DNA of 64,000 nucleotides from Sipunculus nudus (taxonomy: Eukaryota; Annelida; Sipuncula; Golfingiida; Sipunculidae). Every line of letters begins with the position of its first letter. Position 1 is the first letter of the stretch. The stretch is taken from assembly GCA_026874595.1 (NCBI GenBank), contig CM049307.1:45445678-45509677 (forward strand). The letters are read 5' to 3'. The position numbers and the translations under genes were made by a program. The notes under the pieces are model-generated. The model made no database searches. It saw nothing but the letters and a program-made list of their open reading frames with translations, and had not been told where the DNA came from. Below are positions 2,735 to 55,721 of this stretch, piece after piece.

Positions 2735-3100
2735 TTTAAATAAGCCAAGACACGTGGATGTCACTGCACACAGGCTGCTTGTTTTGTTTATATCAACGTG
2801 TTGATCATATATTGGGGCCCGCCAAAATAAACAAAACAAATTCAACAAGGGCATCTGGCAGCAAGTCAGATAAGCCAGAGCTTTGCAAATGGCACTTCGC
2901 AACAAGTAACCTTTCTACCTCCGTATATATGCAACCTACCACACCTTACATGTGTTTTTCCCGTTTATCAACATTGCAAACGTAAAGTTGATAAACAAGT
3001 TCACACATCTTTTACGAAGCCCTTTTAAGAACTTTTCACGACCAAAATTATCCTTAGATCATTAATAATACACAGAAGAAGCCAGAAATCACATATATTT
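2735..3100 (+). repeat. Interspersed repeat family C, copy 1
   Basis: This stretch aligns by eye with 59960-60335 in the same orientation. Shared blocks include a TTTATATC(A/C)ACGT string, GGGGCCCGCCAAAATA versus GGAGCCCGCTAAAATA, a TTCAACAA..CATCTGGC block, TTTCTACCTCC-like text and a final AGAAGCCAGAAATCACATA block. Identity is moderate, with indels, as expected for an old dispersed repeat. No terminal repeats or coding capacity were found, so the class is unknown. The 75-residue open frame inside is incidental. Confidence 0.55.
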
Positions 3101-4002
3101 TTTCAAAAGGTAGGTGATTGGGCACTATATTAAGGTTTGGAAAGGAGACAAATTTGTCCAAATATATACCGTCCCAGACACCAGTAAAACGATGGAGAGA
3201 GTCGTTTGTTGTCTATACATGTACAGAACAAACAACGTTTCTCAATCAAAAGCCGGCAGACAGCTAGAGCGTTAAAATATGACCACAAGTGAGGACACGC
3301 TGTTGGTCAATAAGCCAAAACATAGCCGTCAAGTTTCGCCTCCGCCTCTGTCATTAAAAACTAGTTCGTGCAAGGAAAGCTGTCATATAGTCAGCACGCA
3401 TGATAAAAAGTTAGCGGAAAACCAGTCTATAAGTGTTTGACATTGCAAATATCGGTCATAAAAGAATAGAGAATATTTTTATCCAACAAGCTGAATCGTG
3501 TTTTTAAATAATCATTCGTGGGTGATTATAAAGCCATGTCTCAAGTGGGGTGATAAACCGAGAGAAGGTAATGGTTGAACCTGCTAATAATCCGCATCTT
3601 GCCTCCAAGAAATGGACATGTCTTTCATGATTTGTTTACAGCTCCCATGGCAACGACATAAACAGTCTCATAAAGCGATTCCTCCATGTCCCCGGCAGAT
3701 GAAAGAAATATTGATGAATAGGCTGAAAATTGTTTCTCTCTGCGTCACGTGACTTTATCGCTCAGGTAGGGAGCTTTGCCTTTTCTTCATGACCTACGTC
3801 ATTGTGTCTTTATCATTTACAGGCCAACCTCACTGCAGAATTAAATGATATTGATCATCCCATGTATGTCAAGTCATCCAAGGTTTATGAATTAAAATCT
3901 GAATTTCTAAAAATAGACTTTATTCAATTACATGAATTCCACCTCTAATGTATCATATCATATTAAAGTTTATATATCATATGACGAATCATATAATATA
4001 TA

Positions 4003-17639: not shown

Positions 17640-19200
17640 CACGCAGCTCCACCGTATCGCACTCAATTATTACCCAAGGCTTCACTACAACCACACGCCA
17701 CCACATCAACGCTACATTCCCACGCGGCACCACAACCCCACTCCATCAAAACCACCATTGCACTCAATTATTACCCAAGGCTTCACTACAACCACACGCC
17801 ACCACATCAACGCTACATCCCCACGCGGCACCACAACCACACCCAATCAAAACCACCATTGCACTCAATTATTACCCAAGGCTTCACTACAACCACACGC
17901 CACCACATCAACGCTACATCCCCACGCGGCACCACAACCACACCCCATCAAAACCACCATTGCACTCAATTATTACCCGAGGCTTCACTACAACCACACG
18001 CCACCACATCAACGCTACATCCCCACGCGGCACCACAACCACACCCCATCAAAACCACCATTGCACTCAACTATTACCCAATGCTACACTACAACCACAC
18101 GCCACCATATCAACGCTACATTCCCACGCGGCACCACAACCACACTCCATCAAAACCACCATTGCACTCAATTATTACCCAAGGCTTCACTACAACCACA
18201 CGCCACCACATCAACGCTACATCCCCACACGGCACCACAACCACACTCCATCAAACCACCATTGCACTCAACTATTACCCAATGCTACACTACAACCACA
18301 CGCCACCACATCAACGCTACATCCCCGTGCGGCACCACAACCACACTCCATCAAAACCACCATTGCACTCCACTATTACCCAATGCTACACTACAACCAC
18401 ACGCCACCACATCAACGCTACATCCCCACGCGGCACCACAACCACACCCCATCAAAACCACCATTGCACTCAACTATAACCCAATGCTACACTACAACCA
18501 CACGCCACCACATCAACGCTACATCCCCACGCGGCACCACAACCACACCCCATCAAAACCACCATTGCACTCAATTATTACCCAATGCTACACTACAACC
18601 ACACGCCACCACATCAACGCTACATCCCCACGCGGCACCACAACCACACCCCATCAAAACCACCATTGCACTCAACTATTACCCAATGCTACACTACAAC
18701 CACATGCCACCACATCAACGCTACATCCCCACGCGGCACCACAACCACACTCCATCAAACCACCATTGCACTCAACTATTACCCAATGCTACACTACAAC
18801 CACACGCCACCACATCAACGCTACATCCCCACGCGGCACCACAACCACACTCCATCAAAACCACCATTGCACTCAACTATTACCCAATGCTAAACTACAA
18901 CCACACGCCACCACATCAACGCTACATCCCCACGCGGCACCACAACCACACTCCATCAAACCACCATTGCACTCAACTATTACCCAATGCTACACTACAA
19001 CCACACGCCACCACATCAACGCTACAATCCCACGCGGCACCACAACCACACTCCATCAAAACCACCATTGCACTCAACTATTACCCAATGCTACACTACA
19101 ACCACACGCCACCACATCAACGCTACATCCCCACGCGGCACCACAATCACACTCCATCAAAACCACGCTACACCACCATCGTACTCGACTATTACCCAAT
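17640..19200 (+). repeat. 101-bp CCAC-rich minisatellite, about 15 copies
   Basis: The unit runs from CACTCAATTATTACCCAAGG through CTACAACCACACGCCACCAC, CATCAACGCTACATCCCCAC, GCGGCACCACAACCACA and CATCAAAACCACCATTG. Anchors at 17671, 17772 and 17873 give a 101-bp period; a few copies are 100 bp. The first copies carry CCAAGGCTTCA or CCGAGGCTTCA, later ones CCAATGCTACA. The consensus has no stop codon in any plus-strand frame, so overlapping frames of 640, 571 and 206 codons exist. Because 101 is not a multiple of 3, each protein cycles through three unrelated peptides every 303 bp (ALNYYPRLHYNHT, HSIITQGFTTTTR and TQLLPKASLQPHA types). That pattern argues for satellite DNA rather than a gene. 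The plus strand is nearly free of G, so the minus strand is G/T-rich. Confidence 0.9.
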
Positions 19201-23936: not shown

Positions 23937-25955
23937 ATCAAATCCAGCCATGCTGACCCGAACACAACAGACGACGTGACGTTCGATAGGAATGCTAATG
24001 GTAAAGGTCTTTCAGCAATTACTATCGTTTAGCAATGGTACCAAATCCAGAAAGGCTGACCCGAACACAACATATGACGTGACGTTCGGTGTGAATACTC
24101 GTGGTTAAGGTCTTTCACCAAACACCATCGTCCGGCAATGGTACCAAATCCAAAAAAGGCTGACACGAAGACAACATACGACATGACGTTCGGTGCGCAT
24201 GCTCGTGGTAAAGGTCTTTCACCAAACACTATCATTCGGCACCAATACCAGATCCAGAAAGGCTGACCCGGACACAACATACGACATGACGTTAGGTGCG
24301 CATGCTCGTGGTAATGGTCTTTCACCAAACACTATCATTCGGCACCAAAACAGATCCAGAAAGGCTGACCCGGACACAACATACGACATGACGTTAGGTG
24401 CGCATGCTCGTGGTAATGGTCTTTCACTAAACACTCTCATTCGGCACGAATACCAGATCCAAAAAAGGCTGACCCGAACACAACATACGACATGACGATA
24501 GGTGCGCGTGCTCGTGGTAATGGTCTTTAACCAAACATTATCATTCGGCTCGAATACCAGATCCAGAAAGGCTGACACGAACACAAGATACGACTTGACG
24601 TTCGGTCCGCATGCTTGTGGTAAAGGTCTTTCACCAAACACTATCATTCGGAACGAATACCAGATCCAGAAAGGCTGACCCGAACACAACATACGACATG
24701 ACGTTCGGTGCGCATGCTCGTGGTTATGGTCTTTCGCCAAACTCTCTCGTTCGGCAGGGGTGACAAATCCAGAAAGGCTGACCCGTTCACATCAAGCGAC
24801 GTGAGGTTCGGTACACATACTCGTGGTAAAGGTCTTTCACCTAACACTCTCATTCGGCAGGGGTACCAAATCCCGAAAGGCTGACACGATCACAACAAGC
24901 GACGTGAGGTTCGGTACACATACTCGTGGTAAAGGTCTTTCACCTAACACTCTCATTCGGCAGGGGTACCAAATCCAGAAAGGCTGACCCAAACACAACA
25001 AGCGACGTGAGGTTCGGTGCGCGTACTCGTGGTAAGATTCTTTCACCAAACACTATCATTTGGCAGGGGTACCAAATCCCGAAAGGCTGACCCGATCACA
25101 ACAAGCGACGTGAGGTTTGGTGCGCGTACTCGTGGTAAGATTCTTTCACCAAACACTATCATTCGGCAGGGGTACCAAATCCAGAAAGGCTGACCCGATC
25201 ACAACATATGACGTGACGTTCGGTGCGCATACTCGTGGTAAAGGTCTTTCACCTAACACTCTCATTCGGCAGGGGTACCAAATCCCGAAAGGCTGACCCG
25301 ATCACAACAAGCGACGTGAGGTTCGGTGAGCGTACTCGTGGTAAGATTCTTTCACCAAACACTATCATTCGGCAGGGGTACCAAATCCAGAAAGGCTGAC
25401 CCGATCACAACATATGACGTGACGTTCTGTGCGCATACTCGTGGTAAAGGTCTTTCACCTAACACTCTCATTCGGCAGGGGTACCAAATCCCGAAAGGCT
25501 GACCCGATCACAACAAGCGACGTGAGGTTCGGTGCGCGTACTTGTGGTAAGATTCTTTCACCAAACACTATCATTCGGCAGGGGTACCAAATCCCGAAAG
25601 GCTGACCCGATCACAACAAGCGACGTGAGGTTCGGTGCGCGTACTCGTGGTAAGATTCTTTCACCAAACACTATCATTCGGCAGGGGTACCAAATCCCGA
25701 AAGGCTGACCCGATCACAACAAGCGACGTGAGGTTCGGTGCGCGTACTCGTGGTAAGATTCTTTCACCAAACATTATCATTCGGCAGGGGTACCAAATCC
25801 AGAAAGGCTGACCCGAACACAACAGGCGACGTGAGTTTCGGTAACGTTATGTTCAGTGCGCATGATCGTGATAAAGATCTTTCACCTAACACCATCACTC
25901 GTGGACAAGTTCACGAAACATTATTATTCGGCAATGTACCAAATCCAGTAACAAC
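23937..25955 (+). repeat. 103-bp satellite array, about 19-20 copies
   Basis: Successive AAAGGCTGAC anchors at 24051, 24155, 24258 and 24360 give periods of 102-104 bp. A unit contains ACTCGTGGTAAAGGTCTTTC, ACC(A/T)AACACTATCATTCGGC, AGGGGTACCAAATCC, GAAAGGCTGACCCGA and ACGTGACGTTCGGTGCGC. GGTAAAG..CTTTCACC inside each unit is an imperfect hairpin. Two unit types differ in linked sites (CCAG with TATGACGTGACG and AAAGGTC, versus CCCG with AAGCGACGTGAGG and AAGATTC). From about 25070 to 25480 they alternate as a 206-bp higher-order repeat, followed by repeated copies of the second type. The outermost units are the most diverged, as expected for unequal exchange. Open frames on both strands through the array are by-products. 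Confidence 0.92.
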
Positions 25956-45535: not shown

Positions 45536-46652
45536 TACCCTTATTATTGCAATTTATGTAAATTAAAGCAACCTGTATGTTTATGGAAACCGTTATCACA
45601 GTTATCAATGTAGCAAGACACGTTTGTAAATGTCAAGTGCGAAACCTTTTTTAATATTCTTATCTTACGATGAACGTCGTTGCAATATACAGTGATAAAT
45701 TATATACAAGTAGGTACAAAAAACAATCGAGAGAACGGCGTACATAATTCAGAGAGAAACTGAACAGAAACAGGCTCTTGTAGTAAAATATAATCCTCTT
45801 TTGTTCACAATGGTTCTTTGACCTTTCGTAAATGTTACTTGGTGACAATTGAAATTCATTTCAATAGTAAAGCTTGAACTTACATCGTTACTGCTTCCCT
45901 CTCAACAGCCATCTGTTGTTTTCAAATTGCAAATGTTCTGTTTTACATTCTGAAGGTCCCATTGAATATCCATTCAAGATATTGGGTTGTTTCCTTCGCG
46001 GACATTCCGTCATTGTCAAATATTACCTATGTGTTCTTGAAGGACAATTGCTGCTTTAGAGGGAAGAAAATTTCTAATTATTGTAATGTTCCTTGCAAGC
46101 CCCAAACGTGAGCCTAACCTAACGCCAATAGCCAATTTCTAGCCAATATATGTTGGATGTCGGGTGATGGAATTTCCATGGAAACCTTTTAACGTTGATT
46201 CAACATAGTAATAAAACATATTTCTGTGCGTATATTTATAAAGTCAAGCAAATATGATTCACTGACCATTCAGGGTACAACACCTGTATTCATTATTTTC
46301 CATGTTTTACCGTCTTCGTTCAAGATTATATAGACTTTTCTTTGTTTTTTTTACCTGTGAGTCTATTTTCTCAAATAAATATTTAATGTCAAACAATTTA
46401 GACTGGATGGCTGCCCAAATTATTCATTCATAGATTTTCTTTGCTACTGCATTCTAAACTTTCAACTTCAGCCTTAGAGAGGGTCACAATTATTTAAAGT
46501 GGAAATATTCCCTTTCATATTCCGCAAGGCTCAATGAACATCCATTCAAGATATTAGGCCATTTCCTTAAAGAACTTTTTGCCGTGACCTTGTCACGTTA
46601 GCTAAAGGACAAACGAACAATCAGAGAGTAATTGAATATTGTTGTTTAATGC
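45536..46652. other. Non-coding stretch with an old local duplication
   Basis: CATTCAAGATATTGGGTTGT near 45970 and CATTCAAGATATTAGGCCAT near 46543, each with similar neighbours, indicate a diverged direct duplication about 575 bp apart. No gene recognised. Confidence 0.4.
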
Positions 46653-46661
46653 TGGCGTCAC

Positions 46662-46666
<5 letters not shown>
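46653..46666. repeat. Target-site duplication of the LINE, left copy
   Basis: TGGCGTCACAACTT, identical to 54705-54718, directly followed by the T run that is the LINE A tail on the other strand. Confidence 0.9.

Positions 46667-46706
<40 letters not shown>
46667..46706 (-). other. LINE poly(A) tail
   Basis: A T run on the plus strand (A tail of the element) directly against the target duplication; 46707-46729 holds TTA-type units, and the AATAAA signal is at 46735-46730 on the minus strand. Confidence 0.9.
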
Positions 46707-46707
<1 letters not shown>

Positions 46708-46891
46708 TTATTATTATTATTATTTTTTTTTTATTGCACTCCACAAAATATACATCAAATGTACATATAACACATTATACCAAAACAGAAACAATACATT
46801 ATAAGAATATTTTAGACACAACTGCTTTATGGACGATTCTAAGTTCATCAAATGACTGGGATACTAAAACATGTAAAACACTAAACCACCC

Positions 46892-47185
46892 CTAGCTTAT
46901 CATTTCATGATTTTTCAAATACATTGACCATCGTTTTCTAAAAGTTTCTAATTTCTTATTCTTTTCCGCTACTTTGTATTCAATTCTTACATATTCATAT
47001 AAAAAATTTCTAAATCCTTGTATGTTAGGCTTCTGATTTTTAATTCTACACTGGTCAATATATCTTTTAGCCTGGATTATAATTACATTATACATATCAC
47101 TTTCATCAATAGAGCCATAAAAAACAACTAACTTCTCTAATCTTAATTCTATTAGCTGGTCAGTACACCAAGTCTTCAAATCCAT
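46892..47185 (-). CDS. LINE ORF2 C-terminal segment, displaced by a frameshift
   Basis: This 97-codon frame (MDLKTWCTDQL... to TAG at 46892) overlaps the end of the main ORF2 frame and supplies a plausible continuation of it: the Trp/Lys-rich text after the CCHC-like motif is typical of the extreme C-terminus of L1/Tx1 ORF2. The ATG at its start is just an internal Met. The shift lies at or near an A7 run (plus-strand T7 at 47192-47198), where one base more or less changes the frame. It is followed by about 160 bp of 3' UTR. Whether the shift is a mutation, an assembly error or a site of slippage cannot be told from sequence. Confidence 0.75.
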   Translation of the reverse strand: MDLKTWCTDQLIELRLEKLVVFYGSIDESDMYNVIIIQAKRYIDQCRIKNQKPNIQGFRNFLYEYVRIEYKVAEKNKKLETFRKRWSMYLKNHEMIS

Positions 47186-50100
47186 CCAAAATTTTTTTAG
47201 TTAGTCTACATTCCCAAAATAAATGGTTAATTGTTTCTACCTCACCCTTACAAAACGTACAATAATCAAAATCCTGAATTTTCCATTTCATAAGCCAATA
47301 ATTGTTCACTAATATATTATTGAGAAATTTATATTGAAATATCTTCGATCTTGTATCATACAGTACTCTGTGAGGAAGTGAATAGATACTAGTGTAATCA
47401 TCTGGTGTGTTTATTATATATTTTGATATCTTTGGCTTGGTGGGTTGTACAGAACATATCTTATTTCTTAATACCTGGTAAATTTTATGTGATTTCAATT
47501 TATTCAATGGTACAACAGTTTCTTGAATTTTAACATGTAAATTATGTGCTATATAATCTTCAGATTCCTTATCTTCTTCAAACTCAATCATATTAATTTG
47601 ATCTATAACTGCCTTGCATTGTTTCATTACTAATGTTATTAAAACATACCAGTCAATAAAATAAATGCTACTTAACCCTTTGGATTTCCAGTATTCAAAA
47701 GACAGAACATGGTTCTGTACATCAAATAAATCTTGAACCTTTTGCATTCCCACTTTATAGAAATGTTCCCAATAGAATGTTTTCTTATTAAATACAAAGT
47801 GCTTATTATGCCATAGATATTGTTCTTTTAAATTTACCTCTGCATAATAGTCTAGCTTTAAAAAGTACCAGCTCTGCATCACCTCTCTGTAAAATTCATT
47901 TAATTTTTCTAAGGCTAATAACTTGGGTTTGTAGTTGCAGTTAAATAGTAAGTGAATATCACTACATATTTTCTTTAAGTTGTAAATCCATAATGCTTTC
48001 CAGGGGCCATATTCACTCTGAAAAAATCTTTTGATCCAACCTATTCTGGAAGCCAAAAAAAGTGACTGCAAATGTGGAACATTCAGACCACCATTTTCTA
48101 TTTCTTGCACTAGAACAGACCTTTTTATTTTCTCTTTTCCACCATTCCACAGAAAAGAAAATATAATCTTATTTAGTCTATTTGCATATTTCTCTGATAT
48201 ATTATTATTACTGAAATAATAATTAAATTTAGATATTATATATGTTTTTATAATTTGAATTTTCCCTTGCAATGTCAGATTTCTTTGTTTCCAAAGCTGT
48301 AGAGTATTTTTTGTTTGTTTTAATTTATCTTCCAAATTCAGCTCTTCACACTGTTGTTTATCATATGATATATACACTCCAAGAAGTTTGATTGGTTTAT
48401 CAGGCCAGTGAATTCCAAATGGTTTTAATTTACTATTTTTAGATTTACCTATCCATAAACCTTCTGATTTTTCTAGGTTTAATTTAAGCCCACTGAATTC
48501 TCCAAATGAGTTAACCTGTTTTAAAAAATTGCTGCCTGATGTCTTATCTGAAAGAATTGCAATTGTATCATCAGCATATTGTAAAAGTTTAACTTGTTCC
48601 TGCCCTATTCTAATTCCTTTAATGGCTTGATCATTCCTTATTCTGATAGCTAAAATTTCGATGGCTAATATAAAAAGATAGGGGGACATAGGGTCCCCTT
48701 GTCGGACTCCTCTTTCCACTTTAAAATAACCAGAGGTTGTGCCATAATTAATTATGCAGCTGCTTATATCATTATATAAAAGCTTTATCCAACGTATAAA
48801 GGTCTCTGAAATTTTAAATTTTTTTAGTGTGGCTAACATGAAAGTCCATTCTAAAGAATCAAAAGCTTTTTCCATGTCTAATGCAATAATCATACCGGGT
48901 ATTCTTTTATCTTTCGTATATTCAAGCAAATCTTGAACAAACCTAATATTTTCACCGATAAATCGATTTTTCACATAACCAGTCTGATTAGAGTGTATTA
49001 TTTTAGGTAGGAGCTTTGAAAGTCTAATAGAAAGTGTTTTAGCCAAAATTTTATAGTCTGTATTTAAAAGTGATATAGGTCGCCAGTTTTTTAATAAAGT
49101 ACGGTCTTTATTTTTATCTAATAGAGTGATTACTGCTTGCCTCTGGGATGTGGAGAGTTTACCCTCCTCAAACGATTTATTAAAAGATCTGACTAATAAG
49201 GGACCAACTTGTGGCCAAAATTTCAAATAGAATTCGATAGGCAGACCATCATTCCCTGGGCTCTTATTATTTTTAAATGATTTTACTGTATTATACAATT
49301 CCTCTGTTGTTAATGGTTCACTCAAAAAGTTATTATCTTCTTGTGATAGAAATGGGGTATTTATATCTGATAAATATTTTTCGATCTGTTCAAGTGACTT
49401 ACTGTGATTTGATGAATACAATTTGCAATAAAAATCTTTTTCCAAACAAAGTATTTCATTTGGAATTATAGTATATTCTCCATTATCCTTTCTTAGTTTT
49501 CTCACCCATTTTCTGACTGCATTATATTTTTCTAAATTATAAAAATATTTACTACTTTTTTCTCCTTTTTCAAACCAAGTGACTTTTGATCTCAAAATAA
49601 GTCCTTCTGTTTTATAATTATCTATCTCTTCCAGTTCTTCTTTTATTTTTTGTATTTTTTCAATAATACTTATTTCTGTCTCTGCATCTGAATTTACCAA
49701 TTTAGTTCGGAGAATTTTCAATTCATCAAGTAAATCATCTTCTCGTGCTTTTGTAAATTTCTTTGCTTCTTTACCCTTTTTGACATATAAATCTCTGAGC
49801 TTATACTTAACATACTCCCATATCTTAATATTATTTGTGTTTTCACAAGATTCATTTGACCATGTATGTATAGATTCAACTATATGCTTAGTTATTTGGT
49901 CCTCATTAAGTAGAAACTTGTTTAGCTTCCAATAACCTTTACCCCTCTTTGTAGTATATAGAGGGTCTGTACATATAACTAATCTAATAAAAGAATGGTC
50001 AGACTTTATATATGGAAATAAATCAGCTTTTACGACATAATCTTGAAACTGTTTTGTAATTAGCCAATAGTCTAATCTAGATGATATATTTTCATTTTTA

Positions 50101-50702
50101 GTTCTCCAAGTATATTCCTTTTTATATGGATTTCTTGTTCGCCAAATATCCAATAAATTATGCTGATCCATCATATCATTTATAGCTTTCCTTACAGAGT
50201 CTTTTAGGCATAGAGCACCACCTCTCCTGTCCAACTTTACATTAAGAGCTACATTGAAATCGCCTCCAATGAGAACTACATCATTAAGTGTGACATATTC
50301 TTGCAAAATTTTGTTAAGATTCTTTAAAAAAGAAATTTGATTTGTGGTATAATTAGGAGCATAAACATTAATGATAATATATTGAAGGTTTTCAATTGCC
50401 AATTTTATGACTAAAATTCTACCATCTATGGAACTGTGTAATAAGCTAACACTATCTACATGTAACTGCTGTCTTAAAATTACTGCTGTTCCTCGACTAT
50501 TTGTTGTCCCATGTGAATAGAATACCTGTCCACGCCACTCATTCCTCCAAATATTTTCTATATTTTGACAACTATGAGTTTCTTGTAAAAGTAAAACATC
50601 ACAGTGTTCTTTTTTTGCCCACCTGAATACCGACCTTCTTTTTAATCTGTTTTTAAGTCCTCGGACATTTAAACTTAGCAACTTCAAAGTTGTGTCTGAC
50701 AT
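47160..50702 (-). CDS. LINE ORF2: APE endonuclease and reverse transcriptase
   Basis: The 1,180-codon protein nicks target DNA and reverse-transcribes the element RNA at the nick. Residues 1-240 form an exonuclease-endonuclease-phosphatase domain: N12 (LSLNVRG), E41 (LLQETH), Y114 (NVYAPN), D148 and N150 (GGDFNV), D211 (SRLDYW) and S234-D235-H236. The reverse transcriptase spans about 470-760, with D609 in ALDMEKAFDSLEW, GVRQGDPMSPYLF and Y709-A-D-D (48578-48567); D609, D711 and D712 are the metal-binding residues. Near the end lies C1148-x2-C1151-x8-H1160-x4-C1165, the zinc-knuckle-like motif common in LINE ORF2. All catalytic residues seen are present, with no internal stop. The frame ends early at 47160 because of a shift at an A7 run, losing roughly 90 residues. 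The start ATG at 50702 precedes the first endonuclease strand by the usual few residues. It could be functional if the tail is dispensable or restored by slippage. Confidence 0.95.
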   Translation of the reverse strand: MSDTTLKLLSLNVRGLKNRLKRRSVFRWAKKEHCDVLLLQETHSCQNIENIWRNEWRGQVFYSHGTTNSRGTAVILRQQLHVDSVSLLHSSIDGRILVIKLAIENLQYIIINVYAPNYTTNQISFLKNLNKILQEYVTLNDVVLIGGDFNVALNVKLDRRGGALCLKDSVRKAINDMMDQHNLLDIWRTRNPYKKEYTWRTKNENISSRLDYWLITKQFQDYVVKADLFPYIKSDHSFIRLVICTDPLYTTKRGKGYWKLNKFLLNEDQITKHIVESIHTWSNESCENTNNIKIWEYVKYKLRDLYVKKGKEAKKFTKAREDDLLDELKILRTKLVNSDAETEISIIEKIQKIKEELEEIDNYKTEGLILRSKVTWFEKGEKSSKYFYNLEKYNAVRKWVRKLRKDNGEYTIIPNEILCLEKDFYCKLYSSNHSKSLEQIEKYLSDINTPFLSQEDNNFLSEPLTTEELYNTVKSFKNNKSPGNDGLPIEFYLKFWPQVGPLLVRSFNKSFEEGKLSTSQRQAVITLLDKNKDRTLLKNWRPISLLNTDYKILAKTLSIRLSKLLPKIIHSNQTGYVKNRFIGENIRFVQDLLEYTKDKRIPGMIIALDMEKAFDSLEWTFMLATLKKFKISETFIRWIKLLYNDISSCIINYGTTSGYFKVERGVRQGDPMSPYLFILAIEILAIRIRNDQAIKGIRIGQEQVKLLQYADDTIAILSDKTSGSNFLKQVNSFGEFSGLKLNLEKSEGLWIGKSKNSKLKPFGIHWPDKPIKLLGVYISYDKQQCEELNLEDKLKQTKNTLQLWKQRNLTLQGKIQIIKTYIISKFNYYFSNNNISEKYANRLNKIIFSFLWNGGKEKIKRSVLVQEIENGGLNVPHLQSLFLASRIGWIKRFFQSEYGPWKALWIYNLKKICSDIHLLFNCNYKPKLLALEKLNEFYREVMQSWYFLKLDYYAEVNLKEQYLWHNKHFVFNKKTFYWEHFYKVGMQKVQDLFDVQNHVLSFEYWKSKGLSSIYFIDWYVLITLVMKQCKAVIDQINMIEFEEDKESEDYIAHNLHVKIQETVVPLNKLKSHKIYQVLRNKICSVQPTKPKISKYIINTPDDYTSIYSLPHRVLYDTRSKIFQYKFLNNILVNNYWLMKWKIQDFDYCTFCKGEVETINHLFWECRLTKKILDGFEDLVY

Positions 50703-53700
50703 TCAAGGTGTCTGTGTAACATGGTAAATACTATGTGGAGTGAAATTATGAAAAAGAATAAATAACACAAATCATAACCTAAACCTAAACTATCCAACCC
50801 CTCAGTGAGTGTTAACCTCACTAAACACAACATCATAATTACATTGGAGATCTGCTGCTCCCACATGGTTTTGCAAGTATGGGACCAGACAGCAGCTCCT
50901 TGGAGAACACAACCACACAGAAGCTTGTGTCCTCCAGAACAAGATAGTATCTTATGTCCTATCTGAAATATATATAGACTTGAAGTTAACCAATTACTAA
51001 TTATAAGATACTCACTTGTTAACTGTCAATCACAATATCTAGCAGTGTAACAAAAATGAAAGAACCTTTACACTACGACGATGGATTAGTTGTGACAGTT
51101 TGTGTGGTTTGACGACTATAAGATCACAGCGCTCTTTAATCCATTATTGTAACAAGCTGATAAAATATTTCACTCTTTCTTTAAATTTAAAATACTGGTA
51201 CATGTATAGGATTGTTCAAATAGTTAAACTTAAATGTTAATAGTTAAATGACAAAGCCTTGTTACACATATCTTTGACGATCTAGTAGAGCTTTATGAAA
51301 ATTGGCATATGTCTCCTATTTTAATATTTTACTGTCTTATGTAAAACTATCCGTGAGGTAGATTTTGAAATATTCCACTCTTTCTTTTAATTTAAAATCC
51401 TCTTACAGGATTGTTCAAATAATTAAACTTAAGTGACAAAGTCATGGTACACATATCTTTGACAACCTAGCAGAACTTTATATACCTCATATTTTAATGT
51501 TTTACTGTGTTATGTAAAAATATCCTTGAGGTATCAATTGTATACTAAATGGTATCACCTTATACCAGGACTATGACTATGACAACATGACAGAAATACA
51601 AAGTATATTAAATAGTAAATGCATAATCTATCTCACTTCTCAGTGATTTCCAAATGACATTGTAGAACAGCGATGTATGCCACTGATATCACAGTACACC
51701 AGTTCACAGTACACCAAATAATCAAACTTAAGTGACAAAACCTTGTCACACATATCTTTGACATCCTAGCAGAAATTAATCTACCTCATATTTTAATGTT
51801 TTACTGTGTTATGTAAAAAATATCCTTGAGGTATCAACTGTATACTAAATGGTATCACCTTATACCAGGACTGTTACTATGACAACATGAGAGAAATACA
51901 AAGTATATTAAATAGTAAAATGCATAATCTATCTCACTTCTCAGTGATTTCCAAACAACATTGTAGAACAGTGATGTATGCCATTGATATCACAGTATAC
52001 CAGTTCACAGTACCCAAATAATTAAACTTAAGTGACAAAGCCTTGTCACACATATCTTTGACAACCTGGCAGAACTTTATATACCTTATATTTTAATGTT
52101 TTACTGTGTTATGTAAAAATATCCTTGAGGTATCCTTGTATATTAAATGGTAACAGATTATACCAGGACTATTACTATGACAACATGACAGAAATACAAA
52201 GTATATTAAATAGTAAATGCATAATCTATCTCACTTCTCAGTGATTTCCAAACAACATTGTAGAACAGCGATGTATGCCATTGATATCAAAGTACACCAG
52301 TTCATGACTGTGACAACCTGATTGAAATACAAAGTTTTTAAATATGAATTCATAGTCAATCTCAGTGATTAACTGTGATTTACTGATAACAATCCCACTT
52401 TAAAGTAAGCAATTAATATGGACAGAAATACAGAGTATATTAAATAATGGATGCATAATCTATCTCACTTCTCAGTGTACAACATTGTACAACAGCGATC
52501 GATGTATGCTAATGATATCACAGTACACTAGTGCCATGACTGTTACAACATGATTGACATACAAAGTGTATTAAATATGACTTCATTGTCAATCTCAATG
52601 ATTTACTGACAACTATGACACTTAAAAGTGAGAAGAGAATACCTACTCTTGAAAACAATACTAGAATAGACCAATCAAAGCTTAATAGAGTACCGAAATA
52701 TAGTCTCTTTAAGTAACACTAAATCTATACTTAAAATTTAAACATCATATAGATTGATATATCCAAAAGTGTCTATGAGACTAGACATTATGAACAGATA
52801 AAGACACTATGACTACTGTGTACTAATATTATAATTCAGCATTTGGATTATTGTAATACTGTCAAAGTCTTTAAAATATTATACAAAAAAAAGATTCAAG
52901 GACCAAGGATTGCACGGACAGAGAAGATGTGAACAACATCATATCTGTTATATATGAAGACTGGTGTATTCAGGGATGTAGACATTTCCATACAGCTTTC
53001 TTAATATTTTTTATCTAAAGTCGTAAAGATAAGGAACAATGAGCAAATGGCAAATTATGTGTTCATTGTTTTATGTTGACAGTGGAATACATGATATAAA
53101 TACCAAATGTTCCAGTGATGGTGGTTTTTATATTAATATCCTCAAAAGGAATAAATATTTATAACATTCAGTTATAGAGGAGCTACAAGATGGAAACATC
53201 CCCGCCGAGATGAAGTAGTTTGTTTACAGAAAAAAAATATTTTTAAAAACCAGATAAAGATTACTTTTTTTTGCCATGTGCACAAAGAGTGTCAGTGTTT
53301 ATTGCAGTCTAAAGACATCTTTAAATATACTTCGCAGATCTAGTCTACTCTGTCCGAGTTGTAACTTATCCATTTAAACTGAATAAACTGCAAACTATCT
53401 TTTGACTGATAATTAAAGTGAACCATGGACATAAACTAAAAACCTTTATAGTAATATTAGGCTTCCAAATAATAATTTCTTCAAAGATAAAATGCAGATG
53501 TTTAATAAGGTTCACCACTCAGTGATTTCATGTCCCAAGTTCTCTCCCGCTACAACCTCAAGTACAACCCGGTTAACCAGTTGTTAACCCCAAGATCGCT
53601 TTCATAGAATAAAACAATATTTGATCAAAGTTCCTCATGGGGTCGCTTAATATATATTATTTATTTTTGCACTGCAGTTAAATCATTTCGACTGTCCTCA

Positions 53701-54051
53701 CATACCTTTGAATTCCAGTTCGTAGTTTTTTTTTTTTTTTTTAAACATAGACATGCATCGAACACGCATTCCATGATGAGCGATAAAACAATCAATCAAT
53801 GCCAAGTCCGCTCTCTCATACCCATGGGTCTTAACTGAGTCTCTAATACCGTAAATTACTGAGCTGTTAAATCTCTACTTCGTCAATAGAGGCCGCTCTA
53901 GCAGACTTTCGCGGGGTTTACTTGAAGTCTCCCTGGTCGTGTTGCCGAAAATAAATCCTTGGTTACCACAGAGGACAAGAGAATATAAGCCTGCAGAAAT
54001 AATCCTGGGTGAAGACATGAAACGTCACTGGCCTTATTGAGTAGCCCCTTG
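50703..54051 (-). other. Unusually long ORF1-ORF2 spacer inside the LINE
   Basis: This 3.35-kb stretch lies between the stop of ORF1 and the start of ORF2, within the target duplications. It has no open frame of note. Its middle is a tandem array (listed separately), and a T17 run at 53726-53742 (A17 in element sense) lies near its ORF1 side. In most L1/Tx1 elements this gap is very short. It may be an element-specific regulatory region, or a secondary insertion whose borders have been lost. Confidence 0.75.
51175..52620 (-). repeat. ~300-bp tandem units inside the LINE spacer
   Basis: Anchors of CAAATAAT(T/C)AAACTTAAGTG occur at about 51417, 51716 and 52016, giving a period of 299-300 bp. 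Each unit also carries CACACATATCTTTGAC, TTTTAATGTTTTACTGTGTT, ATATCCTTGAGGTAT, ATACAAAGTATATTAAATAG and ATGCATAATCTATCTCACTT. A shorter unit (about 200 bp) precedes at 51218, and partial, more diverged units follow to 52620. Units share roughly nine-tenths identity by eye in the central three. Confidence 0.85.
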
Positions 54052-54723
54052 TTAAACTGAAATTACCTGGCCTTCAACAATGAGTTGACCCCTGGTAAAG
54101 CGTGAACGCTTTCCCTCATTGTGCGCTTTCCTCATATGCGGCAAGGCTTTTAATCTCTGGTCATAGTCCTCTTTTGTGAAGTCTTCAAACACCAAGTTTC
54201 GTCCGTCCTCCCCCCTCCGTTTTCCTCTGGATATTATATCATTTCTCGTTTCTCTACTATGGAATCTTGCAATGATTTGTCTCACTTTGCCCGGTATTCT
54301 TTTTCCTGTTCTGTGTGTATATTCTATAGCTCTGCAAATTTCATTTTTATCAGCTCCCGGCATTAAATTATGATTGTGTAAAAAGTCCACCAATTTTTCT
54401 CTAACTTTCTCATTCTTTTCCTCACGAATGCCATTTACTCTAATGTTGAATTCTCTTGTGTGCCTTTTTAAGTTCAGAACATCTTGTTTCACCTCAGTAA
54501 GTTCTTTTTCCACCTCCTCTCTAGCAGAGCGTTCTGCACGTAATTGTTCCGTCAGGCTTTCATTTTCATTTTTCAGTCCCTCTATACTTTCATGAGCATT
54601 ATCCAAACTGGTTTCTATGGCCCTCAGTTTAGTTTCAAACTCTTTAGTTATATGTTCTATGATGGAACTACGGGTATCACTGACCTGGGTCTGCAGACTT
54701 TTAATGGCGTCACAACTTAACAA
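54052..54723 (-). pseudogene. LINE ORF1 (L1 ORF1p-like), 5'-truncated
   Basis: L1 ORF1p is an RNA-binding trimer that packages the element RNA. The open frame codes for a heptad-rich Glu/Lys/Leu coiled coil (residues ~18-90 of the frame), an RRM-like domain starting NIRVNGIREE and holding IEYTHRTG and GKVRQIIARFHS, and a C-terminal domain ending GQLIVEGQVISV. The first six codons lie in the target duplication and flank (the frame opens with TTG, not ATG), so the element sequence itself begins at 54704, inside ORF1. The N-terminus and 5' UTR are missing, and the next Met is far inside the RRM region. The copy is therefore unlikely to make a functional ORF1 protein, although its remaining frame is uninterrupted. 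Confidence 0.88.
54705..54718. repeat. Target-site duplication of the LINE, right copy
   Basis: TGGCGTCACAACTT, identical to 46653-46666, marking the truncated 5' end of the element. Confidence 0.9.
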
Positions 54724-55721
54724 ATGTATAGCGATAAGATCTTGCTAGCTTGAGTCACGTGCACAATCTCCTGATTACCCGACTTCTGCGCATGCGCTTT
54801 TGCCTGGAGCTGCCACGTTACCATCACACCATGTATCCCTGCCCACAAAATGAATTTTACCTTAAGCACGTCAAGTTGTGCCAACGGTTGAGACGCGACG
54901 ACTACACATTTAAAATCAAAATTAACATGTTTAAAGCGCCGGATGATGAAGCTAATCAGGTTTAATTAATCTGCAGTTGTCACTCTTCAACATCTTAATC
55001 AGATTAATCTCTTTTTTTTCTGCCCTGTGCGTGTTCTTGTGAAGGCTATCGATTGGAATGTGAGTAAATAACATGAAACAGAGGCCCCAGGCCCCTGCAT
55101 TATAGGAGCCCACATGAAAATGGAACCCTTTCATTTTTTATTTATATATAAAAAGTCTTTCGAAGGACAAATTTTGCTCGAATAGAGGTATAGATTTCAA
55201 TTCAACAGTACATCTTAATTAAAAATTTATACATTAAATATTCAGTAAAAAAGACGCATATTGAAATAAACACATACGGAAATAAATAAATAGAAAGACA
55301 TAATTTTTGGAAGGGTGAACTTGTTTGCTTTGTGCCTAATGTTTTAGCAGGCATTGTGCAGATTTCAAATGGACCAGCAAATATTTCTAACGGGATTTTT
55401 TTACTTTTTATATTCAGGTTAAAAAAGAAGCTAAGTATATATGTAAAATCAATGCGTTACTTTATTTATTGTTATCATCAATTTACATAAGTTTTTTACA
55501 TAATACAGATATTATACATCATGCCAAGAGTCGTTCTCTTGGCTGCGTGGCCTAAAGGACTTTCGTCTGTGGCGTAAATTATTTCTGTCTTTATTCCAAA
55601 CATGTTTCAGACGAGAGTGTCAGCAGGGAAAAACAAGGATAAGAATGATGCTCCATGTTAAGGTCCGCTGACATATTACCTGTGATTGATAGTACCGCAG
55701 TCTCTCTGTGTTACCTTGCAG
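54724..55721. other. Non-coding stretch
   Basis: No supported gene or repeat. Short frames on both strands at 54750-55134 are unremarkable. Confidence 0.4.

What the first reader, a model, noticed from the sequence alone, without database searches (positions are those of the whole stretch)
50703..54051. A 3.35-kb spacer with ~300-bp tandem units between LINE ORF1 and ORF2
The target duplications enclose both ORFs, so ORF1, spacer and ORF2 were copied as one RNA. In known L1/Tx1 elements the ORFs almost touch. Here the gap holds at least three nearly full ~300-bp units plus partial ones. Some mammalian L1s carry tandem monomers that act as promoters, but in the 5' UTR. A monomer array between the ORFs could be an internal promoter for ORF2 or a translation-related element. 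An old insertion into a source copy is the simpler alternative.
Basis: partly seen in the sequence, partly recalled or inferred. Interest (0 to 1): 0.7.

Follow-up and report, generated by a model that had tools for sequence, protein, structure and literature searches.

The report
LINE-1 relative with structured inter-gene RNA
A young jumping gene related to human LINE-1 carries a 3.35-kb stretch between its two genes as a regular part of itself, and the end of that stretch just before the second gene looks like an evolutionarily maintained folded RNA that may help the cell make the second protein.

Summary
In the host genome (G000), 16 of 16 in-family ORF1 matches run straight into spacer base 1, and 20 of 20 in-family ORF2 starts abut spacer base 3349 (40 of 83 candidates scored). 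Full-length copies share one 5' end and a 96-nt 5' UTR without monomers.

The tandem array is the young part: one recognisable unit in a related locus, three in the window copy, two in at least one family member.

The conserved parts are the two ends: a 165-nt block after ORF1 and ~450 nt before ORF2. The latter looks like a multi-hairpin RNA. It folds better than shuffles in three divergent lineages (z -5.0, -5.9, -5.1), and compensatory changes exceed controls by cell count but only weakly by pair count.

The spacer holds 66 AUGs, and no spliced copy was seen. Best reading: a structured RNA promoting internal initiation at ORF2. That function is inferred, not shown. The promoter reading of the array found no support here.

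The parts
46653..46666 (.). Target-site duplication, 3'-side copy (TGGCGTCACAACTT)
   Evidence: Exact 14-bp match to 54705-54718
46667..46732 (-). Poly(A) tail of the LINE (poly-T-rich on + strand)
   Evidence: Sequence read directly
47160..50702 (-). ORF2: endonuclease, reverse transcriptase, zinc-binding end; 1180 aa here, 1269 aa in 4 of 8 other copies tested
   Evidence: human LINE-1 ORF2p match E 3.8e-115
50703..54051 (-). Inter-ORF spacer, 3349 nt
   Evidence: Whole-length matches of 97-100% at 8 loci including this one
50836..51106 (-). Structured RNA domain upstream of ORF2 (helices S1-S5)
   Evidence: z -4.97; 59 hand-drawn pairs, 92.9% of cells paired over 13 sequences
51021..51100 (-). 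Helices S1 (51093-51100 with 51021-51028) and S2 (51068-51076 with 51042-51050)
50939..51019 (-). Helix S3 (51005-51019 with 50939-50953), the helix with most two-sided changes
50902..50935 (-). Helix S4 (50925-50935 with 50902-50912)
50846..50899 (-). Helix S5 with inner stem (50878-50899 with 50846-50865)
51416..52304 (-). Tandem array, three ~300-bp units (52008-52304, 51707-52007, 51416-51706)
53845..54009 (-). Conserved block just after ORF1 (spacer 43-207)
   Evidence: Matched at 66-77% in four relatives; the first 300 nt of spacer are GC- and CpG-richer than most of the rest
54052..54704 (-). ORF1, 5'-truncated in this copy (275 aa in full-length copies)
54705..54718 (.). Target-site duplication, 5'-side copy

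Best explanation
This is a young L1-type LINE whose RNA carries two ORFs with a 3.35-kb region between them. Shown: the region is part of the element. It has two ends that are conserved in relatives and a middle that changes fast. The ~450 nt before ORF2 are conserved, fold better than shuffled sequence and show compensatory changes. The 300-bp array lies in the middle and differs in unit number. Inferred: a full-length capped RNA starts at ACTTCCGGTTAATGGCG and makes ORF1 protein by ordinary scanning. Ribosomes cannot plausibly scan 3.35 kb with 66 AUGs, so ORF2 is started from within the RNA, with the structured domain as an internal-ribosome-entry-like or ribosome-landing element. That would relax the need to keep the two ORFs close and let the middle grow and turn over.
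For: Element feature: 16 of 16 in-family ORF1 rows (at least 93% identity; 31 rows, 30 of 30 candidates scored) abut spacer base 1, and 20 of 20 in-family ORF2-start rows (at least 97%; 41 rows, 40 of 83 candidates scored) abut spacer base 3349. Eight of 10 fetched copies run ORF1-spacer-ORF2-3' end in order (one with a ~200-nt internal duplication, one with ORF1 truncated); two are truncated inside the spacer. Shared 5' end: of 11 in-family copies reaching the 5' region, 8 start at base 1-2, two at 11, one at 21; the last is a copy split by a nested insertion. Conserved end: the part before ORF2 (spacer 2903-3347, in L031 from 2704) is 72-77% identical in three relatives, against fourfold-degenerate identities of 55% (23 of 42, ORF2) and 27% (8 of 30, ORF1) for the L029 relative and 60% (33 of 55, ORF1) for the C17 relative. 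Structure: lowest forward z of 81 windows along one copy (-3.35); domain z -4.97, and -5.94 and -5.11 in two divergent relatives folded on their own. A model built without those two finds both (E 6e-6 and 6e-4, rough). On six sequences, 14 cells have two-sided compensatory change against 6.1 +/- 1.8 in shuffles and 0-3 in slid controls. 66 AUGs in the spacer.
Against: No ribosome entry was measured. Five AUGs lie between the domain and the ORF2 AUG, and the ORF2 AUG context looks weak (T at -3, sequence reading). Rfam has no match. RNAalifold on 13 sequences gave no covariation bonus (term +0.92) and a partly different structure; 4 of 80 predicted pairs had two-sided changes. On six sequences the number of pairs with two-sided change is only 8 against 5.3 (25 of 500 shuffles as high), and further pair types 22 against 20.4 (129 of 500); on 13 sequences 3 pairs against 1.4 (40 of 500) and 21 types against 18.9 (20 of 500). 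One search's alignment was fitted to the model, and most of the 13 sequences are one lineage. In single-sequence folds S1 is favoured in 8 of 13, S3 in 8 of 13, S2 and S5 in 10 of 13, S4 in 12 of 13; L031 lacks S1-S3 and the window's own S1 is not favoured in the 455-nt fold. The C15 match (6e-4) is no stronger than that of a copy with only the 3' part of the domain (L042, 4e-4). In mammals the inter-ORF sequence is reported dispensable (passage in PMC2881922).
Confidence: 0.5

Rival explanations
1. The conserved domain is a structured cis-acting RNA signal with another job: ORF1p or ORF2p binding and RNP assembly, nuclear export, localisation, or template choice. ORF2 is made by rare reinitiation or another route.
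For: The conservation and structure data fit any RNA function equally well. A cis-acting localisation signal is reported for another LINE, the I factor (title in the reference list of PMC2881922).
Against: Its position, ending 140-152 nt before the ORF2 AUG in four lineages (about 205 nt in the C4 relative, where the ORF2 start is extrapolated), points to ORF2 (positions).
Confidence: 0.28
2. The spacer, or its 5' CpG-richer block or the array, is an internal promoter that makes a monocistronic ORF2 RNA, as the first reader proposed for the array.
For: The first 300 nt of spacer are GC- and CpG-richer and part of this is conserved in relatives. Tandem repeats occur in 5' UTRs of some mammalian L1s (PMC5872511 passage); their promoter role is recalled.
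Against: The shared 5' end of full-length copies, relatives included, points to transcription from the element start. One recognisable unit is present in a related locus and number varies. An ORF2 RNA starting in the 5' block would still carry most of the AUGs. Three 5' ends of simple truncations within the spacer (bases 26, 408, 1678) do not cluster, but they are few.
Confidence: 0.12
3. The spacer is a retained intron: genomic RNA keeps it and a spliced RNA expresses ORF2.
For: Donor-like CAG|GT strings exist at the ORF1 end and near its start (sequence reading). At the ORF1 end the L029 relative keeps a GT at that place. Conserved ends with a variable middle are intron-like.
Against: The ORF1-end donor is absent in the C17 and C15 relatives and the one near the ORF1 start is not compatible with the L029 translation. 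No spliced insertion is seen among 11 in-family copies reaching the 5' end or 16 in-family ORF1 matches. Two internal deletions of the spacer (252|2180 and 575|2308) lack GT-AG edges. No splice-site predictor was run.
Confidence: 0.07
4. The long spacer is passive ballast: insertions and duplications accumulated in a tolerant region, and the conserved ends are remnants without current function.
For: The middle is variable, the array is a repeat of one unit, and probable nested transposons sit in the spacers of two relatives.
Against: The ORF2-side end is 74-77% identical where fourfold-degenerate sites are 27-60% identical, with compensatory base changes.
Confidence: 0.03

Closest known systems
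Mammalian L1 (LINE-1)
   Same: ORF2p endonuclease-RT-zinc layout and sequence, coiled-coil ORF1p, poly(A) tail, target duplications, 5' truncation and inversion, and an AATGGCG motif at the RNA 5' end that resembles a YY1 site (motif recalled; YY1 at the human L1 5' end is in the abstract of PMC11602158, seen in the listing)
   Different: Inter-ORF spacer 3349 nt against 63 nt in human L1 (PMC5972666 passage); 5' UTR only 96 nt without monomers; conserved RNA structure before ORF2
Tandem repeats in L1 5' UTRs (mouse, rat, perissodactyls)
   Same: Tandem units whose number changes (perissodactyl type 1: three repeats, one later lost; PMC5872511 passage)
   Different: Array lies between the ORFs, is AT-rich, and is about 2.7 kb from the RNA start
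Mouse L1 IRES upstream of each ORF (Li et al. 2006; title seen only in the reference list of PMC2951350)
   Same: The same idea, internal entry for ORF2 on a dicistronic LINE RNA
   Different: Here comparative evidence for a fold in a kilobase-scale spacer, and no assay; how the mouse element is built was not read
SART1 stop-start coupling (PMC5972666 passage)
   Same: Unconventional ORF2 initiation involving RNA structure
   Different: In SART1 stop and start overlap and the structure is downstream; here the ORFs are 3.35 kb apart and the structure is upstream
Caliciviral termination-reinitiation (PMC5972666 passage)
   Same: RNA element upstream of a second ORF
   Different: [quoted passage not shown] here the stop is kilobases away

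Membership tests
L1-clade non-LTR retrotransposon | APE-type endonuclease, reverse transcriptase and zinc-binding C-terminus in ORF2 | tested here: met
   Pfam Exo_endo_phos, RVT_1, zf-RVT; human LINE-1 ORF2p best of 54 solved sequences, E 3.8e-115, ahead of R2. No tree was built, so L1 against Tx1 subclade is not settled
L1-clade non-LTR retrotransposon | ORF1p with coiled coil, RRM and C-terminal domain | tested here: inconclusive
   Helix at residues 2-110 (10-residue pLDDT means 80-98); residues 131-216 average only 40-64; single sequence, no alignment. No Pfam L1 ORF1 family among the 25 of 52 rows shown at E up to 10; no relevant solved structure
L1-clade non-LTR retrotransposon | Target-primed insertion: target duplication, poly(A) tail, variable 5' truncation or inversion | tested here: met
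   truncated and inverted copies
L1-clade non-LTR retrotransposon | ORFs close together (63 nt in human) | tested here: not met
   3349 nt here; about 0.95 kb in the L029 relative. Treated as variation, not as defining
Monomer-promoter L1 (mouse type) | Tandem monomers at the 5' end of the RNA | tested here: not met
   96-nt 5' UTR; array about 2.7 kb downstream of the RNA start
Internal ribosome entry site | Drives cap- and ORF1-independent translation | not testable with these tools
   Needs reporter or translation assays
Internal ribosome entry site | Match to a described IRES family in Rfam | tested here: not met
   Three matches at E up to 1 over 46600-54800, none an IRES family
Conserved structured RNA | Stable fold with compensatory base changes across related lineages | tested here: met
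   RNAalifold gave no covariation bonus; other limits in the Against line
Intron or spliced ORF2 message | Conserved splice sites or spliced insertions | tested here: not met

The most novel reading that the evidence does not exclude
The domain is a true retrotransposon IRES, maintained by selection across several L1-related lineages, that uncouples ORF2 translation from ORF1. This freed the inter-ORF region to become a kilobase-long, array-bearing regulatory space: a third solution for ORF2 expression besides mammalian reinitiation and SART1-type stop-start coupling.
Probability: 0.35. Interest if true: 0.82.

Novelty: new variant of a known kind. Interest (0 to 1): 0.62.

Why it matters
How LINE ORF2, the enzyme that moves the element, gets translated from a two-gene RNA is unsettled, and the human case has a very short spacer. 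Here nature supplies related lineages with spacers from about 1 to 3.35 kb (more with nested insertions) around one conserved block, so the question becomes directly testable with small reporters. It also suggests that the inter-ORF region of an L1-type element can hold selected RNA structure and repeat turnover of the kind known from 5' UTRs.

Tried and rejected
Rejected: a one-locus insertion; a protein hidden in the spacer (longest sense stop-to-stop stretch 107 codons); splicing. A captured satellite is unlikely, as one recognisable unit sits in a related locus, but a genome search with the unit alone did not complete, nor one with the spacer middle. The ~340-bp arrays in the 9.4-kb gap of the C17 relative looked like convergent array evolution, but they match abundant unrelated repeats and lie in a 5.3-kb stretch bounded by 211-bp inverted repeats; a further ~2.9 kb of that gap is unplaced. 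The C4 relative's gap holds 168-bp, 99% direct repeats 7.3 kb apart. Rfam gave no match near its cut-offs. The ORF1 model was too weak to fold-search. Alignment A3 gave stronger covariation but included false members (two partial copies, a reverse-strand hit, a short spurious hit, a copy split by an insertion), so I rely.

Rows dropped before counts: ORF1 rows under 93% identity (15 of 31); ORF2 rows under 97% (21 of 41); alignment A1 used 13 of the 16 sequences, and A2 10 of those 13; one search was given 6 of the 9 sources; one distant copy (C2:15559117) with 7.3 kb from 5' end to ORF2 was left out of the distances.
Full report
What was checked. The window holds a LINE on the minus strand, bounded by a 14-bp target duplication (46653-46666 and 54705-54718) and ending in poly(A). 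ORF2 (47160-50702) carries endonuclease, reverse transcriptase and zinc-binding domains, and its best solved relative is human LINE-1 ORF2p, E 3.8e-115. The gap between the ORF2 start and the ORF1 stop is exactly 50703-54051, and the 300-bp array lies at 51416-52304. The window copy is truncated in ORF1.

The spacer belongs to the element. The spacer has 52 match rows, 8 of them whole at 97-100% identity (40 of 44 candidates scored, so counts are lower bounds). In 16 of 16 in-family ORF1 rows the match ends directly at spacer base 1. In 20 of 20 in-family ORF2-start rows the spacer's last base abuts ORF2 (40 of 83 candidates scored). Ten copies were fetched: eight run through ORF1, spacer, ORF2 and 3' end in order, and two are truncated inside the spacer. 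Among the other copies, two have large deletions inside the spacer (253-2179 and 576-2307, coordinates) and several are inverted in part. Over ten copies including the window, regions differ from the family majority by 0.3-0.7% on average, so the family looks young. Four of eight copies tested keep ORF2 open for 1269 aa.

Where the RNA starts. Copies that are not truncated begin at the same base, ACTTCCGGTTAATGGCG, in some preceded by extra G or GA next to the target duplication (by eye). Of 11 in-family copies reaching this region, 8 start at base 1-2, two at base 11 and one at base 21. The last is split by a nested insertion and reaches the 5' end beyond it. The C17 relative and six of seven more distant copies also match from base 1. 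The 5' UTR is 96 nt (ORF1 at L013:3222, element start L013:3126). ACTTCCGG and AATGGCG resemble ETS and YY1 sites (recalled, not tested). The transcription start is therefore inferred to be at the element's 5' end, not in the array.

What varies. The L029 relative (66% DNA identity over the 5' UTR and ORF1, 80% in the ORF2 start) has about 0.95 kb between its ORFs. Four further copies of that kind have 5'-end-to-ORF2 distances of 1867-2033 nt (L029 itself 1866) against 4271 and 4277 nt in two window-family copies; a further one, C2:15559117, has 7.3 kb, presumably a nested insertion. The L031 relative carries one recognisable 300-bp unit where the window copy has three, and the C17 relative an 85-nt remnant. 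Within the window family, one copy read in full has two units (L050), and two more lack about one unit by coordinates (C16 and C3:95767). Units inside one element are 93-94% alike, which suggests that they are older than the spread of the copies. The array thus looks like a local duplication in a fast-changing middle. The gaps of two relatives are about 9.4 and 9.8 kb: one holds a 5.3-kb stretch between inverted repeats plus ~2.9 kb of unplaced sequence, the other direct repeats 7.3 kb apart, probably nested transposons.

What is conserved. Spacer 43-207, just after ORF1, matches at 66-77% in four relatives over most or part of its length and can be aligned by eye in a fifth. The part just before ORF2 is 72-77% identical in three relatives. 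In L029 and the C17 relative most of the rest of the spacer does not align; in L031 more does. Fourfold-degenerate identities are 55% (23 of 42, ORF2) and 27% (8 of 30, ORF1) for L029 and 60% (33 of 55, ORF1) for the C17 relative. BLAST alignments favour their better parts, so this comparison is indicative.

The RNA fold. Along one full-length copy, the window most stable relative to shuffles, of 81 tested on the sense strand, lies at spacer 3077-3276 (z -3.35). The domain at 50836-51106 has z -4.97. Two divergent relatives folded on their own have z -5.94 and -5.11 and by eye show the same succession of hairpins. A hand-drawn structure of 59 pairs is formed in 92.9% of cells over 13 sequences; 0 of 500 shuffles reach this or the covariation score, and sliding the 3' arms drops pairing to 32-53%. 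The structure was drawn from these sequences and most of them are one lineage, so both controls favour it. Weaker measures in the same call: 3 pairs with two-sided change against 1.4 (40 of 500 shuffles as high) and 21 further pair types against 18.9 (20 of 500). RNAalifold on the same alignment gave no covariation bonus (term +0.92), 4 of 80 pairs with two-sided changes and a partly different structure.

An independent test. A covariance model from ten sequences without the two divergent relatives then found both of them (E 6e-6 and 6e-4, rough calibration). The second value is no better than that of L042, which holds only the 3' part of the domain (4e-4). On the six-sequence alignment, 14 cells show two-sided compensatory changes against 6.1 +/- 1.8 shuffled and 0-3 slid, and the covariation score is reached by 0 of 500 shuffles; the count of pairs with such a change is 8 against 5.3 (25 of 500) and further pair types 22 against 20.4 (129 of 500). 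This alignment was fitted to the model. In single-sequence folds of 13 sequences S4 is favoured in 12, S2 and S5 in 10, S1 and S3 in 8; L031 lacks S1-S3, and the window's own S1 is not favoured in the 455-nt fold.

How it may work. ORF1 is reachable by scanning. ORF2 is not: the spacer has 66 AUGs. Splicing found no support: no spliced insertion among the copies listed, donor strings not shared by all relatives, and two spacer deletions without GT-AG edges. Reinitiation across 3.35 kb would be far beyond the 63 nt of human L1 (passage in PMC5972666). I therefore favour internal or assisted initiation through the domain, at about 0.5. The domain ends 140-152 nt before the ORF2 AUG in four lineages (positions). 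Against a simple version, five further AUGs lie in between. Other RNA functions remain open at about 0.28.

What is known. In print I saw, as passages only: mammalian inter-ORF sequence dispensable, and ORF2 translation dependent on ORF1 in human L1 and SART1 (PMC2881922); the 63-nt human spacer and SART1 stop-start coupling (PMC5972666); 5'-UTR repeats that change number in perissodactyl L1, and length variation of the intergenic region to a lesser extent (PMC5872511). Passages of PMC11203168 on gastropod LINEs gave nothing on spacers. A mouse L1 IRES report and the Alisch and Kojima papers were seen only as citations. A comparative paper on vertebrate L1 that I recalled is not held. In the listings of searches I saw no title or abstract start that reports a kilobase inter-ORF spacer or a conserved RNA fold before ORF2. 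The library is open-licence only and I did not open most of the papers, so novelty is provisional.

Noticed in passing
L042:1-227 and L043:357-600: Two loci on different contigs (C13:63310001 and C17:13914801) join what by eye is an inverted ORF2 stretch to the same spacer base (about 3165): either a duplicated locus or a rearranged copy that went on amplifying.
   Followed up: partly
L015:1000-3340 (G000:C17 around 34469521-34471817): A probable DNA transposon with ends CAATAAATAAAACTCGGAAGTC is inserted 32 nt into one LINE copy with a 12-bp duplication; that copy's 5' end also carries a 19-nt duplication of its first bases.
   Followed up: partly
L045:1717-1992: In a relative on C15 the domain match is followed after about 76 nt by ORF2 residue 182, so the start of the endonuclease is missing; four further ORF1 matches of 72-74% identity lie on C15 between 35.6 and 44.9 Mb.
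   Followed up: partly
G000:C3:95765978-95775449: A window-family copy is a mosaic of 91-98% identical spacer pieces with two gaps of over 2 kb, presumably nested insertions.
   Followed up: no
17659-19166: A 15-copy, 101-bp tandem array (96% matches) that is open in overlapping reading frames, up to 640 codons.
   Followed up: no
23939-25842: An 18.5-copy, 103-bp tandem array, 89% matches.
   Followed up: no
53845-54009: The conserved block right after ORF1 shows no consistent fold by eye across five lineages and may be a DNA or protein-binding element.
   Followed up: partly
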